Positions 60 through 39,733 of a stretch of DNA of 39,733 nucleotides are shown one piece after another; position 1 is the first letter of the stretch; each line of letters begins with the position of its first letter. A program made the position numbers and the translations under genes. Under the pieces are notes generated by a model, which saw only the letters and a program-made list of their open reading frames with translations, was not told the DNA's origin and ran no database searches. This DNA is from Clostridiales bacterium (lineage in GTDB: Bacteria; Bacillota; Clostridia; Christensenellales; SZUA-584): NCBI GenBank assembly GCA_029265435.1, contig JAJUJH010000006.1:1-39733 (forward strand), in the 5' to 3' direction.

Positions 60-92
60 ATGAGCGCATTTGGCTGCCTGCGGAATAAAAAA

Positions 93-296
93 GCAAGCGG
101 GTGCGATACCCGCCTGCCCCGACTGTCAATAAAGCTATAAATATCATTTGTGGGCAAGACGGGCTTTGCCCGCGCAGCCCACACCTTGCGGTTTTGCGCC
201 GTTTCGAGCTTGCGAGGACCAAGCAAAACCGGAAAACTGTCGGAAAACCGAAGGTTTTTCGACAAGCTGAGCAAGCGGGCGCAATACCCGCCTGCC
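93..296 (+). repeat. Terminator-nested dispersed element, copy 1
   Basis: The element proper is 119-270 (about 152 bp), starting near GACTGTCAATAAAGC and ending near CGACAAGCTGA. It is flanked by a near-identical 26-bp hairpin sequence at 93-118 and 271-296 (two mismatches; each folds as GCGGG..CCCGC). On the minus strand the 93-118 hairpin is followed by TTTTTT (complement of 87-92), so the host site is the intrinsic terminator of the minus-strand gene ending at 311. Inside are three stems: GTGGGCAA/TTGCCCGC (150-157/166-173), GCGGTTTTGC/GCAAAACCG, and GTCGGAAAACC/GGTTTTTCGAC (239-263). Short ORFs here are not conserved as protein. The same element recurs at 19475, 31687 and, inverted, 38362. 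Confidence 0.9.
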
Positions 297-310
297 TGTG
301 AGGACCGATG

Positions 311-1186
311 TTACTGGTACTGAAGCGGCAGGCCCGCGGCAGTCAGCACCATTTTGTAATGCTCCTTATCCACAAACCCGAGCACATCCGACGTGCTGCC
401 CATGAAGTAAAGGCATACGTGACCGTTCATGCCGTTGTCGGCAATCGTATCCGTACCGTCCGGATGTCCGAACAGCGACGCCGCATATACTTCCGAACCG
501 ACGGTCACAAGCACGGCGCGCTTTTCCCATGTGGGCTCCGCTCCCTCTTGGGCGATGCCAAAACAGGTTTTGAATGTCTCATACGCGGCCGAGTCCACCA
601 CCTCGACATCCGCGTGGCCGGTTCCGCCCGTGCGCTGGACTGTGAACGAGCTGCCGGTGTTGTAGTCCGTCACCGTGGCCGTCGCACCCACGGGGAAGGC
701 CGGGTCAACAACCGTCGCCCAGTCGGCCGCCTTTCCGGGCGCCGGCGCCGTGCCGACCAGCGACGGGCCGTAATAAACCTTTACCGACGCGCCGAGCGGC
801 TTTCTGGCGGCGTCCGCCGAAAAGAGCTTTTCATATGTCATCTGGCCGACCTGCCCGTCCGTATCAAGGCCGTTGTTTCGCTGGAAGCTGATAACGGCGT
901 TTTGTGTCAGCGTTTTATACGAGCCGGTGGGTCTGTAATTCAAATAGCCGAGGTCTCTGAGGCGCATCTGCACTTTGAAGACACGAATGCCGGAGCTCCC
1001 CGACTCAAGCACCTCAAATGCGGAAGAAGGCGCCGCCGCCTCATCGTCGGGTATGGAATCGTCCGTACCCGACGGGCTTGCCGACGCATCCGGCGATGCC
1101 GACGTATCCGGCGCGCCCAGCGATACCGGAACTGCCAGAGTAAAGACAAGCGCCAGGATCAATATGACAAACAATGCTTTCTTCAT
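311..1186 (-). CDS. Secreted peptidoglycan-binding-domain protein
   Basis: A 291-residue exported protein. It starts at the ATG at 1186, which has GAGGAG eight bases upstream; a GTG three codons earlier would overlap that site. Residues 1-25 form a signal peptide (KK followed by a long hydrophobic run ending in GAPD). A Ser/Pro/Asp-rich linker follows to about residue 55. Residues 60-110 match the PG_binding_1 fold (GSSGIRVFKVQMRLRDLGYL, then TQNAVISFQRNNGLDTDGQVG), which binds cell-wall peptidoglycan. The C-terminal 170 residues resemble the poorly characterised region of clostridial proteins with this architecture; I see no catalytic motif. It probably acts outside the membrane in wall binding or sensing. 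Its terminator is occupied by repeat copy 1. Confidence 0.8.
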   Translation of the reverse strand: MKKALFVILILALVFTLAVPVSLGAPDTSASPDASASPSGTDDSIPDDEAAAPSSAFEVLESGSSGIRVFKVQMRLRDLGYLNYRPTGSYKTLTQNAVISFQRNNGLDTDGQVGQMTYEKLFSADAARKPLGASVKVYYGPSLVGTAPAPGKAADWATVVDPAFPVGATATVTDYNTGSSFTVQRTGGTGHADVEVVDSAAYETFKTCFGIAQEGAEPTWEKRAVLVTVGSEVYAASLFGHPDGTDTIADNGMNGHVCLYFMGSTSDVLGFVDKEHYKMVLTAAGLPLQYQ

Positions 1187-1600
1187 TCTTTTCACTCCTC
1201 AAACGGCCTTCGCACGCGCGACCGGTCATGCTTTTCTTGTCTTATTCTATCACAGTTTGGAAAGCGTGTACAGGCTTCAAAAGTTCCTTGCCCGCAAACG
1301 AAGCATTGAACCGGCGCCAGAACCGCGTTATTCCACCTCCGTATACCCGTTACGCCGTGCTTCTCGGAAGCCTCAAAGCCCCCCTCGAACGTATGGGCGC
1401 ATCCGTCGGACAGCGCAGCCATTTCCGATAAAACGCGCACCACATAAGCCAAAATAACGGCACAATAAAGGCAGGGGCAAACGATTGATCAATATATACC
1501 GTCATCCTCAAAAATGCGTGAGCCCCAACCGGTTTCATTTCCTCGGTTGCCGTATCTTTATTCGCCCCTGCCGTCTCCTTAAGATCAATGCTGCTGTCAG
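1187..1600. other. Intergenic stretch without a convincing gene
   Basis: About 410 bp between the LigD polymerase gene and the secreted protein gene. A minus-strand frame (1350-1604, TTG start overlapping the polymerase stop) could encode 84 residues with one hydrophobic stretch, but it has no ribosome binding site and no recognisable family. Nothing else is supported here; the promoter of the 1186 gene should lie in its left part, but I see no clear consensus. Confidence 0.5.
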
Positions 1601-19443: not shown

Positions 19444-19655
19444 AGCCTCCCGTACTGCCGGCGGAAGGCTTGGACTGTCAATAAAGCCAATAATATTATA
19501 AATCGCGGGCAAGACGGGCTTGGCCCGCGCAGCCCGCACCTTGCGGTTTTGCGCCGTTTCGAGCTTGCGAGGAACAAGCAAAGCCGGAAAACTGTCGGAA
19601 AACCGAAGGTTTTTCGACAAGCTGAGCCTCCCGTACTGCCGGCGGAAGGCTTGGA
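19444..19655 (+). repeat. Terminator-nested dispersed element, copy 2
   Basis: The element is 19475-19624 (150 bp). It is flanked by a 31-bp sequence repeated without any mismatch (19444-19474 and 19625-19655), itself an imperfect stem-loop (GCCTCCCG..CGGCGGAAGGC). On the minus strand the left hairpin is followed by TTTTT (complement of 19440-19444), so the host site is the terminator of the vanW-like gene ending at 19679. Stem 1 is CGCGGGC/GCCCGCG (19504-19510/19523-19529). The perfect flanks make this the youngest-looking copy. Confidence 0.92.
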
Positions 19656-19678: not shown

Positions 19679-21439
19679 TTATGCCGCCGGAACCGCCGGA
19701 TCAGTCGATGCCGCCGGATCGGCCGGAGCCGTCGGATCGGGGGCAGGCGGGCCGGACTCAGGCCAATAGTAATATGTCACGCCGTTAACCGGCTTGTAAT
19801 CCGCATGCTCATACAGCTTTTCGGATAGCTGCGTGCCGTCGGCGGCCAGCACATATTTATATACGTCGATCTTCGTCCCTGCGTGCGGCGTCGAAAATAC
19901 GTATACCGGATTTTCCGGGCTCAGCACCGTGTCGTCGGGCGCGACCTTCGTATTGTATACCGAACGCGATGTGCCCATGCCGTAATGGGAACCCTTGTTG
20001 CTCGAACGAAAATCGTAAATGATGTTCTCGCCGAATTCCGGATCCACTGGCAGCTGACCGTACACCTCCACTGTGACCGTCTTTTTCTTCGGATCGACGT
20101 AAGACACGAGATAGACGGGTTTCGTATTGTCGTTGCGGAGCTTGAGGTCCTGCGCACCCGTATTCAGCGTCGCATCGAGGCCTTTGGATATATAATCCGA
20201 CGGCGTGGAATGATGCCAGAACTCCACGATGGTCAGGTTCGCGCGGAGCGCCGCGTTATACGTCGTGCTGCCGAGCTGGCAGGCACCGCCGCCCACCTGC
20301 GGCGTCGAGCCGCCGTTTTCAAGGCCCGCCGCCTTGCGCCAGCCGATCGTTCTCGCCGTCGTTGCGTTGCGCGGGCCCGCCTTCTCGTTGGCCGACCACA
20401 CCTCTCCCGGATTCAACACCGACGCGTTGATAAAGCTTGACATGCGCGACACGTTCCACACGCGGTTCTGGCCGTCATGTTTGCTGTAGCTCGATGTCCA
20501 CGATGCGATCAGCTGCGTATCCGCTTTGATATCGTCAAGCTTGACTGTCGCCTCCGTGACTTTCACCGGCACCTCGATCTCGCTGAAATCACCGGTTTCG
20601 ACCGCGCTTTTCACCTTGTCGAATATGGCGTCCGTATCGCAATCAAGCCCGGTCACCTCGGGCGAATAATAAAACCGTGCGATGCTCGCGTCTTCGGGTA
20701 TGAAGTTCTCCGTTTCATAATGATCGTTGTTCCAATACTGATAGCGAAGCTTGTTGACACTCGACAGATCGATGCGTACAAGCTCGGGGCGGTCTAGATT
20801 TTTACCTTTGGAGTTTGCGTCCGCGAGCGCCCTCGGATCCGGTTCGTATTTGACGGGGTTGCCTTCCGCGTCCAGCGAATAGCCGTTTGGCATAAACTCC
20901 GCCGTCGCGTCTTTGGGCGCCTGATCAAGCTCGGTTTTGATTCTGGCGAGAGCTTCGCGAAGCTTTTCGTCGTTTGTCTTTAAGCGCACGGTAAACGAAA
21001 CGCCTTCGCTTTTCGCCTTGTCGTACGCGGCCTTGCGTTCATCGAAAGCGCCCGTATGCCCATATTCGGCCGCCTGCGCCAATATATCTTCATAGTCGGT
21101 TTCAACCCCGAGGTCCGTCAGCGCGTATTCATGAATTTCGCCGTTGACGTTCAGCTTAAACGTTTCGGCGCTTAAAAGCTCTTTGCTTATGCCCTGCGTG
21201 GCAGTCTTGGCTTCCTCCGCCGTCAGCCCCGATATATCCACGCCGTTCACGCTGATACCCGCCATCACCGTATGGAAATCCAGCACGCGCTCCACACGCT
21301 GCTCTCTGCCGCCGAATACCAAAAACGCGGCAGCCGCCGCAGCAAGCACCAACACGCAGGCCGACACGATCACAAAAATACGCCGGCCTTTCTTTTTGCC
21401 GGGGCTGACTTCCATGGTTTCTCCAACTTCTCCAATCAT
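19679..21439 (-). CDS. VanW-family membrane-anchored protein
   Basis: About 586 residues with one N-terminal anchor (RRIFVIVSACVLVLAAAAAAFLVF) and a long extracellular part. Residues after the anchor (MAGISVNGVDISGLTAEEA) match the PG_binding_4-type repeat. The VanW core is FINASVLNPGEVWSANEKAGPRNATTARTIGWRKA, followed by GGGACQLGSTTYNAAL and IVEFWHHSTPSDYISKGLDAT. The C-terminus is a Pro/Ala/Asp-rich tail. VanW proteins are common in clostridia and linked to the cell wall; despite the name, no van ligase genes occur here, so resistance is not implied. ATG 21439 or ATG 21415 (better spaced GGAGA) may be the start. The terminator is occupied by repeat copy 2. Confidence 0.9.
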   Translation of the reverse strand: MIGEVGETMEVSPGKKKGRRIFVIVSACVLVLAAAAAAFLVFGGREQRVERVLDFHTVMAGISVNGVDISGLTAEEAKTATQGISKELLSAETFKLNVNGEIHEYALTDLGVETDYEDILAQAAEYGHTGAFDERKAAYDKAKSEGVSFTVRLKTNDEKLREALARIKTELDQAPKDATAEFMPNGYSLDAEGNPVKYEPDPRALADANSKGKNLDRPELVRIDLSSVNKLRYQYWNNDHYETENFIPEDASIARFYYSPEVTGLDCDTDAIFDKVKSAVETGDFSEIEVPVKVTEATVKLDDIKADTQLIASWTSSYSKHDGQNRVWNVSRMSSFINASVLNPGEVWSANEKAGPRNATTARTIGWRKAAGLENGGSTPQVGGGACQLGSTTYNAALRANLTIVEFWHHSTPSDYISKGLDATLNTGAQDLKLRNDNTKPVYLVSYVDPKKKTVTVEVYGQLPVDPEFGENIIYDFRSSNKGSHYGMGTSRSVYNTKVAPDDTVLSPENPVYVFSTPHAGTKIDVYKYVLAADGTQLSEKLYEHADYKPVNGVTYYYWPESGPPAPDPTAPADPAASTDPAVPAA

Positions 21440-21599
21440 AAAAAAAGGCCCTCTTTCAAAATACAAATCAAATATATAATTAACATTATCCTACTCAATT
21501 ATACGCACAAAATGCCTTCCCGGCAATAAAAAACATTTTCCCCGGCGCAAAACCAAAACCTGCCGACGTTTAATACATAAGCCAAGAAGGCTTTGCGCC

Positions 21600-31659: not shown

Positions 31660-31845
31660 AGCCTCGAAGCATCTGCTTCAAGGCCCAGACTTTTAATAAA
31701 GCTGGAAATACCATTTGCGGGCAAGGCGGGCTTTGCCCGCGCAGCCACACCTTGCGGTTTTGCGCCGTTTCAAGCATGCGAGAAACTGTCGGAAAACCGC
31801 AAGGTTTTTTCGACAAGCTAGCCTCGGAGCGTCTGCTTCGGGACC
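31660..31845 (+). repeat. Terminator-nested dispersed element, copy 3 (internally deleted)
   Basis: The element is 31687-31819 (133 bp); the 3' arm of stem 2 is missing, roughly an 18-bp deletion relative to copies 1 and 2. It is flanked by related hairpins at 31660-31686 and 31820-31845 (AGCCTCGAAGCATCTGCTTCAAGG versus AGCCTCGGAGCGTCTGCTTCGGG), now diverged but each still foldable. On the minus strand the distal hairpin is followed by GGGGTTTTAT. The proximal hairpin touches the stop codon of the endolysin gene, whose terminator is the host site. Confidence 0.85.
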
Positions 31846-32769
31846 TTATTCCGGCTGTCCGATCAGCGCCGCCCATGTTTTCGGCCCCACAACACCGTCC
31901 GTTTCAAGCCCCGCCGCCTTCTGAAACAGCTTCACGGCTTGCTCCGTCTTGGGGCCGTATATGCCGTCCGCACCGCCCGCATCGTAGCCCTTGTTTTCCA
32001 GCGCCTGCTGAACGCGGCGCACGTCGTCGCCCCTCATATACGGCTTCCCTCCGTTTTTCAGCAGCCGCGTATAACCGGCGGCGTTGAAGGCGCCGCGCCA
32101 GCATTTGAGGCGTCCGAAACGGTTCCACCCCGCCACGTCAGCGGATTCGCGCACCACGCCGTCATCCCGCCCCTTTGCGTGTACGACGCTTCCGTCTCCC
32201 ATATACACGCCCACGTGATACATCTGATTTTTGAGCGCATATTTTTTGAACATGAGATCGCCCGCCTGAAGCTCACTTCTTTCGATCGCGCCGCACTCGT
32301 CGAAGAATAGCCCGTTCGCCGTCTTATCTTTTACGATCAGCTTGTTGTCAAGCAGAAATTTGACGATCAATCCGGAGCAGTCATAGCAGACAAGCGACGC
32401 GCCGGCGGCCGCATGTGCGTTGTACGACGCCATCGCGCGCCGGTAATTGCCGTCGTCCTTTTCGAGACTGCGGATAAGGGCAGGCGTTGCCGTCTGTCCC
32501 TGCCCGCCCGACACATACAGCGCCCCGACCTGAGCCGCGATATACGCAACAAAGGTCTGCCTCATGTCCGCCGCGCCGCGCCATTCTTCGGCGCTCACCA
32601 ATGCCGCCGCGTCCCCCGCTTTCACGAATCCCGGTATGTACGCAATCAGCGTTCCGGCCGCGTTTTCCTCCATCACAAAAACGGCGTCGCCGCAGTTGAG
32701 CGACCCGATCACCCATTCTCCCGTGCTGTTATACACGTCCACGCTCTTTTCTGCCACCTTCATATTCAT
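31846..32769 (-). CDS. Phage endolysin: NlpC/P60 peptidase with peptidoglycan-binding domain
   Basis: 307 residues. Residues 1-60 look like an SH3-type wall-binding fold. The NlpC/P60 Cys-His domain spans about 70-230, with catalytic Cys131 (YDCSGLIVKFL) and His185 (YHVGVYMGDGSVVHAKGR). Residues 235-305 form a PG_binding_1 domain (RGDDVRRVQQALENKGYDAGG, GPKTEQAVKLFQKAAGLETDGVVG). It should cleave the stem peptide of peptidoglycan, for phage release. ATG 32769 has GAGG upstream and lies four bases after the preceding tail gene. It has no signal peptide, as expected for a holin-dependent lysin. Confidence 0.92.
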   Translation of the reverse strand: MNMKVAEKSVDVYNSTGEWVIGSLNCGDAVFVMEENAAGTLIAYIPGFVKAGDAAALVSAEEWRGAADMRQTFVAYIAAQVGALYVSGGQGQTATPALIRSLEKDDGNYRRAMASYNAHAAAGASLVCYDCSGLIVKFLLDNKLIVKDKTANGLFFDECGAIERSELQAGDLMFKKYALKNQMYHVGVYMGDGSVVHAKGRDDGVVRESADVAGWNRFGRLKCWRGAFNAAGYTRLLKNGGKPYMRGDDVRRVQQALENKGYDAGGADGIYGPKTEQAVKLFQKAAGLETDGVVGPKTWAALIGQPE

Positions 32770-38299: not shown

Positions 38300-38336
38300 T
38301 GTTGTTCTCTCCCTTCGTTTTTTTGTATATAAAAAA

Positions 38337-38537
38337 CGGATCGCCGTTCGGCTGATCCGCCAGCTTGTCGAAAAACCTTCGGTTTTCCGACAGTTTTCCG
38401 GTTTTGCTTGTTCCTCGCAAGCTCGAAACGGCGCAAAACCGCAAGGTGTGGGCTGCACGGGCAAAGCCCGTCTTGCCCGTGAATGATATTTTTAGCTTTA
38501 TTGACAGCCTGACGGATCGCTGTTCGGCTGATCCGCC
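38337..38537 (-). repeat. Terminator-nested dispersed element, copy 4 (inverted)
   Basis: The element, 38362-38512 (151 bp), runs in the opposite orientation to copies 1-3. It is flanked by a 25-bp hairpin sequence at 38337-38361 and 38513-38537 with a single mismatch (CGGATCGCCG.. versus CGGATCGCTG..). On the minus strand the distal hairpin is followed by TTTTTT (complement of 38331-38336). The host site is a terminator inside the prophage structural operon. Stem 1 here is CACGGGCAA/TTGCCCGTG (38456-38464/38473-38481), with an A-T pair where copies 2 and 3 have G-C. Confidence 0.9.
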
Positions 38538-39087: not shown

Positions 39088-39733
39088 TCATTTTATGCGT
39101 CCGTTTGCCCCGCGTTTGTTTTCTTTTGCGCGTTTTTCCGCGGCGTCCGCCGCCTTGCCGGCAATGTCCGGCAAGCTTTCGCGGCGCGGCTGCACCGCCT
39201 GCGTCTCCAGCCGCTTCACTTCGTCCAGCAGCTCCTCCCGCATCGGAATATACCCGTCGGGTATGCGCTCAAGATACTGACGAAAAGAAATCTGAGACCC
39301 CTTCAGAAGATTATCAAGCGTCTGCACCGTCTGCACCTCGCTCCACATCGTCGAAGGCCCCACATCCACCTTGAGGCGCATCGCATAGGCGTCGAGCACA
39401 TTCTCGGGCAGCGGCACAAACACGCGCCGCCCCTCAATGTCAATCGGTATCATGCGTCCCGCACGGTAATACTGACGTATAAAATCCAGCCAGATCAGCC
39501 CGACATCCTCCACGAACGCATAAAACCGTTCCTGCTGCGATTGCAGCGGCACCAGCGCCGCGTCCCTCGTCGCGATGAACGCGGACGTGTTGTCGGGGTT
39601 TTTGACATTGCCGAGAGTCACGTCGTTCGCGCCCATCATGCGCATCGTCGTATCCAGCGTCGCATGGAGCCCCTGCCACGCATCATAAGACACGCCCGGC
39701 GGCATCAGATACTGCGCCGCTCCCGCAATGTCG
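39088..39733 (-). CDS. Phage portal protein, C-terminal part (runs off the window)
   Basis: The frame is open to the right edge, so only the last 215 or so residues are seen. The sequence DVTLGNVKNPDNTSAFIATRDAALVPLQSQQERFYAFVEDVGLIWLDFIRQYY is typical of portal (upper collar) proteins from podovirus-like prophages of Firmicutes. It is followed by VFVPLPENVLDAYAMRLKVDVGPSTMWSEVQTVQTLDNLLKGSQISFRQYLERI and a basic, disordered end (AEKRAKENKRGANGRIK). Portal proteins form the DNA entry ring of the capsid. The terminase should lie to the right, beyond the window. Confidence 0.8.
   Translation of the reverse strand, partial: DIAGAAQYLMPPGVSYDAWQGLHATLDTTMRMMGANDVTLGNVKNPDNTSAFIATRDAALVPLQSQQERFYAFVEDVGLIWLDFIRQYYRAGRMIPIDIEGRRVFVPLPENVLDAYAMRLKVDVGPSTMWSEVQTVQTLDNLLKGSQISFRQYLERIPDGYIPMREELLDEVKRLETQAVQPRRESLPDIAGKAADAAEKRAKENKRGANGRIK

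What the first reader, a model, noticed from the sequence alone, without database searches (positions are those of the whole stretch)
19444..19655. The terminator hairpin is duplicated on both sides of each element
The flanks differ between loci but match within each locus: 26 bp with two mismatches (93/271), 31 of 31 identical (19444/19625), a diverged 25-27 bp (31660/31820), 25 bp with one mismatch (38337/38513). The T-tract stays only after the distal copy, relative to the gene being terminated. So the insertion makes an unusually long target duplication that equals the whole hairpin, and the host keeps a working terminator. The element would then be transcribed as part of the 3' UTR. The degree of divergence gives an age order, with copy 2 youngest.
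Basis: partly seen in the sequence, partly recalled or inferred. Interest (0 to 1): 0.9.

Follow-up and report, generated by a model that had tools for sequence, protein, structure and literature searches.

The report
Mobile repeats that duplicate terminator hairpins
Dozens of copies of a 150-base gene-less mobile repeat sit inside the "stop transcription" hairpins of this gut-type bacterium, and each insertion has copied the whole hairpin to both of its sides; its ends match a known transposon family (IS1182) whose best-studied member instead deletes the hairpin.

Summary
The ~151-bp element (CAGACTGTCAATAAAG...GGTTTTTCGACAAGCTG, no ORF) has about 60 near-complete copies in its own genome, and its terminal motif occurs exactly 92 times there. 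Of 64 copies with both flanks (57 own, 7 from a sister species), about 55 carry a flank duplication that no shuffle reached. In 51 it abuts both element ends, is 18-35 bp (mean 25), and is a terminator hairpin centred on its dyad. Three non-hairpin sites have flush duplications of only 4, 5 and 6 bp. Orthologous sites of copies 3 and 4 in a sister species hold one hairpin. Unrelated-interior elements with the same ends behave likewise elsewhere in the order (Christensenellales). Autonomous IS1182-family insertion sequences there have matching ends (16/18) and duplicate hairpins of 22-34 bp. So this is a MITE of IS1182 type that targets hairpins and duplicates them whole, unlike IS1272, which deletes them. 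Continued termination and transcription of the element are inferred, not shown.

The parts
92..118 (.). Copy 1: hairpin copy distal to the gene at 311-1195 (-); A-tract outside it (T-tract on the - strand)
   Evidence: 25 of 27 identical to 270-296
119..269 (+). Copy 1: element, 151 bp, 2.0% from consensus (rank 4 of 57)
270..296 (.). Copy 1: hairpin copy proximal to the gene
19444..19470 (.). Copy 2: distal hairpin copy (27 bp target duplication); T-tract on the - strand outside it
   Evidence: 27 of 27
19471..19624 (+). Copy 2: element, 154 bp; first four bases TGGA instead of CAGA; 7.3% from consensus (rank 47 of 57)
19625..19651 (.). Copy 2: hairpin copy proximal to the gene at 19679-21466 (-), followed by TGGA on the + strand
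31660..31685 (.). Copy 3: hairpin copy, diverged (21 of 26)
31686..31819 (+). Copy 3: element, about 134 bp, internally shortened, 9.0% from consensus (rank 53 of 57)
31820..31845 (.). Copy 3: second hairpin copy, next to the 3' end of the gene at 31846-32769 (-)
38336..38360 (.). Copy 4: distal hairpin copy with T-tract (on the - strand)
   Evidence: 24 of 25
38361..38511 (-). Copy 4: element, 151 bp, reverse orientation, 3.3% from consensus (rank 12 of 57)
38512..38536 (.). Copy 4: proximal hairpin copy
   Evidence: the orthologous site in G001 has one hairpin

Best explanation
The element is a non-autonomous transposable element (MITE) with IS1182-type ends. A DDE transposase of the IS1182 family, supplied in trans, selects the palindrome of a transcription terminator, most likely as an extruded hairpin or cruciform. 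It joins the two element ends to phosphates placed symmetrically on the two strands at the foot of the hairpin. Gap repair then copies the whole hairpin to both sides of the element. Because the hairpin is kept twice and the T-tract stays outside, the gene keeps a complete terminator on the distal side, so insertions are tolerated and accumulate. Shown: ends, copy number, hairpin duplication centred on the dyad, single hairpins at two orthologous empty sites, and the same behaviour of autonomous IS1182 elements in the order. Inferred: the transposase in trans, cruciform extrusion, continued termination.
For: About 55 of 64 copies have a duplicated flank that no shuffle reaches. In 51 it is 18-35 bp, flush with both element ends, and a hairpin. 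Its two edges lie at equal distance from the hairpin dyad (31 of 51 exactly, 43 of 51 within 1 bp), and its length follows hairpin size (Spearman 0.62, p=1.5e-6). Sites are gene 3' ends: of 45 copies with an ORF on both sides, 44 have at least one ORF converging on them and 1 is divergent. Orthologous sites of copies 3 and 4 in G001 have one hairpin. The terminal motif occurs up to 92 times in some genomes of the order against a reversed-pattern control near 0; unrelated-interior elements with those ends have identical hairpin duplications of 25-32 bp. Autonomous IS1182-family elements (NF033551 395-442 bits) duplicate hairpins of 22-34 bp (L217, L220, L223, L225, L235) and have ends CAGACCRTCRACAAA; the MITE left end matches one of them 16/18.
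Against: No intact IS1182 transposase was found in the window's genome, only remnants, and six other element-rich genomes have no DDE_Tnp_1 match, so the mobilising enzyme is not seen next to these copies. The right end matches IS1182 ends less well (13/18). Several autonomous copies with both flanks held lack a matching pair of hairpins. No transposition was observed. The empty sites come from another species, with different hairpin sequences.
Confidence: 0.85

Rival explanations
1. Fixed long-stagger model: the enzyme makes a cut of about 25 bp centred on any palindrome in linear duplex DNA; no hairpin is extruded.
For: Duplication length is fairly narrow (mean 24.8, sd 3.2), and dyad symmetry is expected for any dimeric enzyme on a palindrome.
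Against: Length ranges 18-35 and follows hairpin size (rho 0.62). Non-hairpin sites give 4-6 bp, not 25.
Confidence: 0.2
2. The two hairpins existed before: the element inserted between two tandem hairpins, or the hairpins are part of the element.
For: Both hairpins flank nearly every copy.
Against: Hairpins differ between loci and match only within a locus; orthologous G001 sites have one hairpin; three copies have no hairpin at all.
Confidence: 0.03
3. The elements are mobilised by an unrelated enzyme (not IS1182) that happens to share hairpin targeting.
For: IS1182 is below detection in several element-rich genomes and only degraded in the own genome; DDE_Tnp_1 is absent from six of them.
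Against: End similarity (up to 16/18; shuffles essentially never score as high) together with the same whole-hairpin duplication in bona fide IS1182 elements of the same order.
Confidence: 0.12
4. The element is kept for a function, for example as a structured 3' UTR RNA, rather than as a parasite.
For: Strong predicted RNA fold, z = -4.8; many copies at gene 3' ends.
Against: No Rfam match; patchy distribution within the order; divergence and truncated copies; folded MITEs are usual.
Confidence: 0.07

Closest known systems
IS1272 / TnSha1 (IS1182 family, staphylococci; PMC4923244, PMC5678879)
   Same: Targets stem-loops, many of them transcription terminators, without sequence consensus; IS1182-family transposase.
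   Different: IS1272 deletes or replaces the stem-loop with blunt joints and no target duplication. Here the whole stem-loop is duplicated, the outcome that PMC5678879 drew only as a hypothetical pathway b. The element here has no transposase gene.
IS1182 family at large (Siguier et al. 2015, cited in PMC4923244 and PMC5678879 as having some palindrome-targeting members, without detailed data)
   Same: Transposase family of the autonomous relatives (NF033551); palindromic targets; long variable duplications are listed for the family (from memory, not checked).
   Different: I found no published description of a MITE of this family, nor of systematic hairpin duplication at dozens of loci per genome.
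Bacterial MITEs (reviewed in PMC10969869)
   Same: Short, no ORF, inverted ends, high copy number, intergenic, folded transcript.
   Different: The review describes AT-rich intergenic targets and ordinary direct repeats; here the targets are terminator hairpins and the duplications 18-35 bp.
Group IIC introns (from general knowledge)
   Same: Insert at intrinsic terminators.
   Different: Retroelements without target duplication and with intron RNA; neither fits here.

Membership tests
MITE | Short (<500 bp), no coding capacity, many copies | tested here: met
   151 bp consensus; 57 near-complete copies analysed, 92 exact end motifs in 2.59 Mb
MITE | Terminal inverted repeats | tested here: met
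   CAGACTGTCAATAAA versus CAGCTTGTCGAAAAA (imperfect)
MITE | Target duplication on insertion | tested here: met
   Hairpin duplications of 18-35 bp at 51 of 64 copies; 4-6 bp at three
IS1182 family (as non-autonomous derivative) | Ends like those of IS1182 elements | tested here: met
   16/18 and 13/18 to ends of autonomous elements of the order
IS1182 family (as non-autonomous derivative) | Same target and duplication as autonomous members | tested here: met
   L217, L220, L223, L225, L235 duplicate hairpins of 22-34 bp
IS1182 family (as non-autonomous derivative) | Mobilised by an IS1182 transposase present in the genome | tested here: inconclusive
   Only remnants in the own genome; the assembly is fragmented and repeats are collapsed
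IS1272 type | Deletion of the stem-loop, no duplication | tested here: not met
   The stem-loop is duplicated
Known RNA family | Rfam match | tested here: not met
   No match in the window at gathering thresholds

The most novel reading that the evidence does not exclude
The transposase makes a constant short staggered cut (4-6 bp) across the base of an extruded hairpin or cruciform, so the hairpin adds nothing to the distance the enzyme sees, and the duplication equals the hairpin plus a few base pairs. Each insertion therefore recreates its own target, which allows repeated insertion into one terminator (as the hairpin-element-hairpin-element array in L162 suggests).
Probability: 0.4. Interest if true: 0.7.

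Novelty: new variant of a known kind. Interest (0 to 1): 0.55.

Why it matters
It gives a large natural data set (over 50 insertions, most in one genome) for a transposition outcome that had been drawn only as a hypothetical branch: duplication of a whole stem-loop. It shows how a mobile element can use terminators as safe havens without removing them. The relation of duplication length to hairpin size is a direct handle on whether a transposase sees extruded cruciforms in living cells. It also warns that such elements enlarge 3' untranslated regions and break short-read assemblies at terminators.

Tried and rejected
The transposase remnant at C163 (L074) was rejected as partner: it is IS5_1 type and has no matching ends. 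IS1182-like genes of the same genus and family (L113, L114, L117, L121) have no matching ends. IS5_1 (NF033578) and DDE_Tnp_1 (PF01609) searches did not find a partner in element-rich genomes. Scans of viral contigs for the end motif gave mostly chance matches, with three hairpin-flanked copies (L206, L211, L212). The three short-duplication sites do not clearly restore a known gene when the flanks are joined. No reciprocal partner was found for the copy with two different hairpins (L033). An Rfam search of the window gave nothing. Literature searches for a MITE of the IS1182 family or for duplicated terminator hairpins found none described; subscription papers are not in the library.

Full report
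Check of the observation. The four loci are as described. At 19444/19625 the identical stretch is 31 bp, but comparison with the other copies shows that the last four letters (TGGA) stand where the element normally begins with CAGA; the target duplication proper is 27 bp. The others are 25 of 27 (copy 1), 21 of 26 (copy 3) and 24 of 25 (copy 4).

Extent. I fetched flanks for most of these, for 18 places in a sister species, G001, and for two in G002. The element occurs in all three genomes held for the genus; outside the genus the only hit among 58 relatives was a borderline 23-base match (E 9.7e-4) in one genome. The consensus is 151 bp, CAGACTGTCAATAAAGC...GGTTTTTCGACAAGCTG.

Target duplication. 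In 64 copies with both flanks (57 own, 7 from G001), about 55 have a flank match that none of 60 shuffles of that flank reached. In 51 the duplication abuts both element ends, is 18-35 bp long (mean 24.8), and folds as a hairpin. The edges lie symmetrically about the dyad: measured from the outermost pair, the start and end offsets are mirror images in most cases, and measured from the outermost G:C pair 31 of 51 are exactly symmetric and 43 of 51 within 1 bp. Length follows hairpin size (Spearman 0.62, p = 1.5e-6). Three copies, L011, L017 and L032, lie at sites without a hairpin and have flush duplications of 4 (GTAT), 5 (ATCAT) and 6 (GATCTC) bp. That is the main new clue to mechanism: the enzyme's own stagger may be about 5 bp, with the hairpin looped out.

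Terminators. Forty-eight copies had enough flank for an ORF-based look at context. Of the 45 with an ORF on both sides, 20 read <|<, 17 >|<, 7 >|> and 1 <|>, so all but one have a gene ending at them; stop codons are mostly 20-60 bp from the element. The outer side of at least one hairpin copy is A/T-rich in 41 of 51 sites; the inner sides are the element ends, which have no T-tract. That it still works, and that the element is transcribed, is inference. Among codirectional sites the orientation is uneven (20 against 7), unexplained.

Empty sites. G001 contig C78 is syntenic with the right part of the window. At the place of copy 4 it has one hairpin next to an A-tract (AAAAAAAGACCATTTTGGTCTC), and at the place of copy 3 one hairpin (GCTCTGAGG...CCCCAGAGC). 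These are another species' hairpins, so this supports a single-hairpin ancestral state rather than proving it letter by letter.

What mobilises it. The terminal motif is strongly enriched in about 15 of 396 genomes of the order, against a reversed control near zero. Elements there have unrelated interiors (161-206 bp) but the same ends and perfect or near-perfect hairpin duplications of 25-32 bp. A search with an IS1182-family transposase found in one such genome (L177) returned 32 loci whose titles place them mostly in Clostridia, including Candidatus Pullichristensenella, Ventricola and Limiplasma; the name Christensenellales for the order is my inference from these titles. Several of these autonomous elements are flanked by duplicated hairpins: 33 bp in L217, 22 in L220, 34 in L223, 33 in L225, 29 in L235 (lengths as aligned, including up to two mismatches). 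Their ends read CAGACCRTCRACAAA, and the transposases score 395-442 bits against NF033551, cut-off 270. The MITE's left end matches the right end of L224 at 16 of 18; the MITE's right end matches its best at 13 of 18; shuffles essentially never score as well. I conclude that the element is an IS1182-type MITE. The direct partner was not found: the own genome has only remnants, and assemblies break at such repeats.

Age order. Element divergence and duplication mismatch correlate only weakly over 46 copies (Spearman 0.38, p = 0.009). In the window they disagree: copy 2 has a perfect duplication but 7.3% element divergence (rank 47 of 57), copy 1 has two mismatches but 2.0% (rank 4). The start of copy 2's element, TGGA, is what follows the second hairpin copy, so gene conversion between the two hairpin copies probably made them identical. 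Perfect identity is therefore not a clock here.

Relation to known systems. IS1272 and TnSha1 of staphylococci (IS1182 family) insert at terminator stem-loops but delete them with no duplication (PMC4923244, PMC5678879). [quoted passage not shown] Siguier et al. 2015 is cited in both as noting that some IS1182 members target palindromes. The present data show the duplication outcome in bulk, for MITEs and for autonomous members of one order. It is a new variant of a known kind, not a new kind.

Noticed in passing
L162 2493-3224: Four elements of one orientation alternate with copies of one hairpin (hairpin-element-hairpin-element...), either by repeated insertion into the duplicated target or by unequal crossing-over.
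   Followed up: partly
L011, L017, L032: Three copies at non-hairpin sites have flush duplications of only 4, 5 and 6 bp.
   Followed up: partly
L043/L044, L061/L082, L085/L091, L090/L012: Contig ends lying in the element can be paired by their shared hairpin (C35-C2, C46-C182, C213-C30, C78-C98), so the duplications can scaffold the assembly.
   Followed up: partly
L103, L104, L107, L108 (G001): A shortened version that keeps about the first 70 bp of the element is recurrent in the sister species; in L103 the right end follows directly (about 45 bp missing).
   Followed up: no
L206, L211, L212: Viral (IMG/VR) contigs carry elements with these ends next to hairpins; in L206 and L211 the hairpin edge recurs about 170-210 bp on.
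   Followed up: partly
L216, L218, L222, L226, L234: Autonomous IS1182 elements whose two ends abut different hairpins, perhaps from recombination between copies or assembly errors.
   Followed up: no
window 39088-39705: Phage P22-like portal protein domain (PF16510) near the window's end, possibly a prophage edge.
   Followed up: no
own-genome and G001 copies: Codirectional sites are unevenly oriented relative to the element (20 with genes entering from the CAGCTTG end, 7 from the CAGACTG end).
   Followed up: partly
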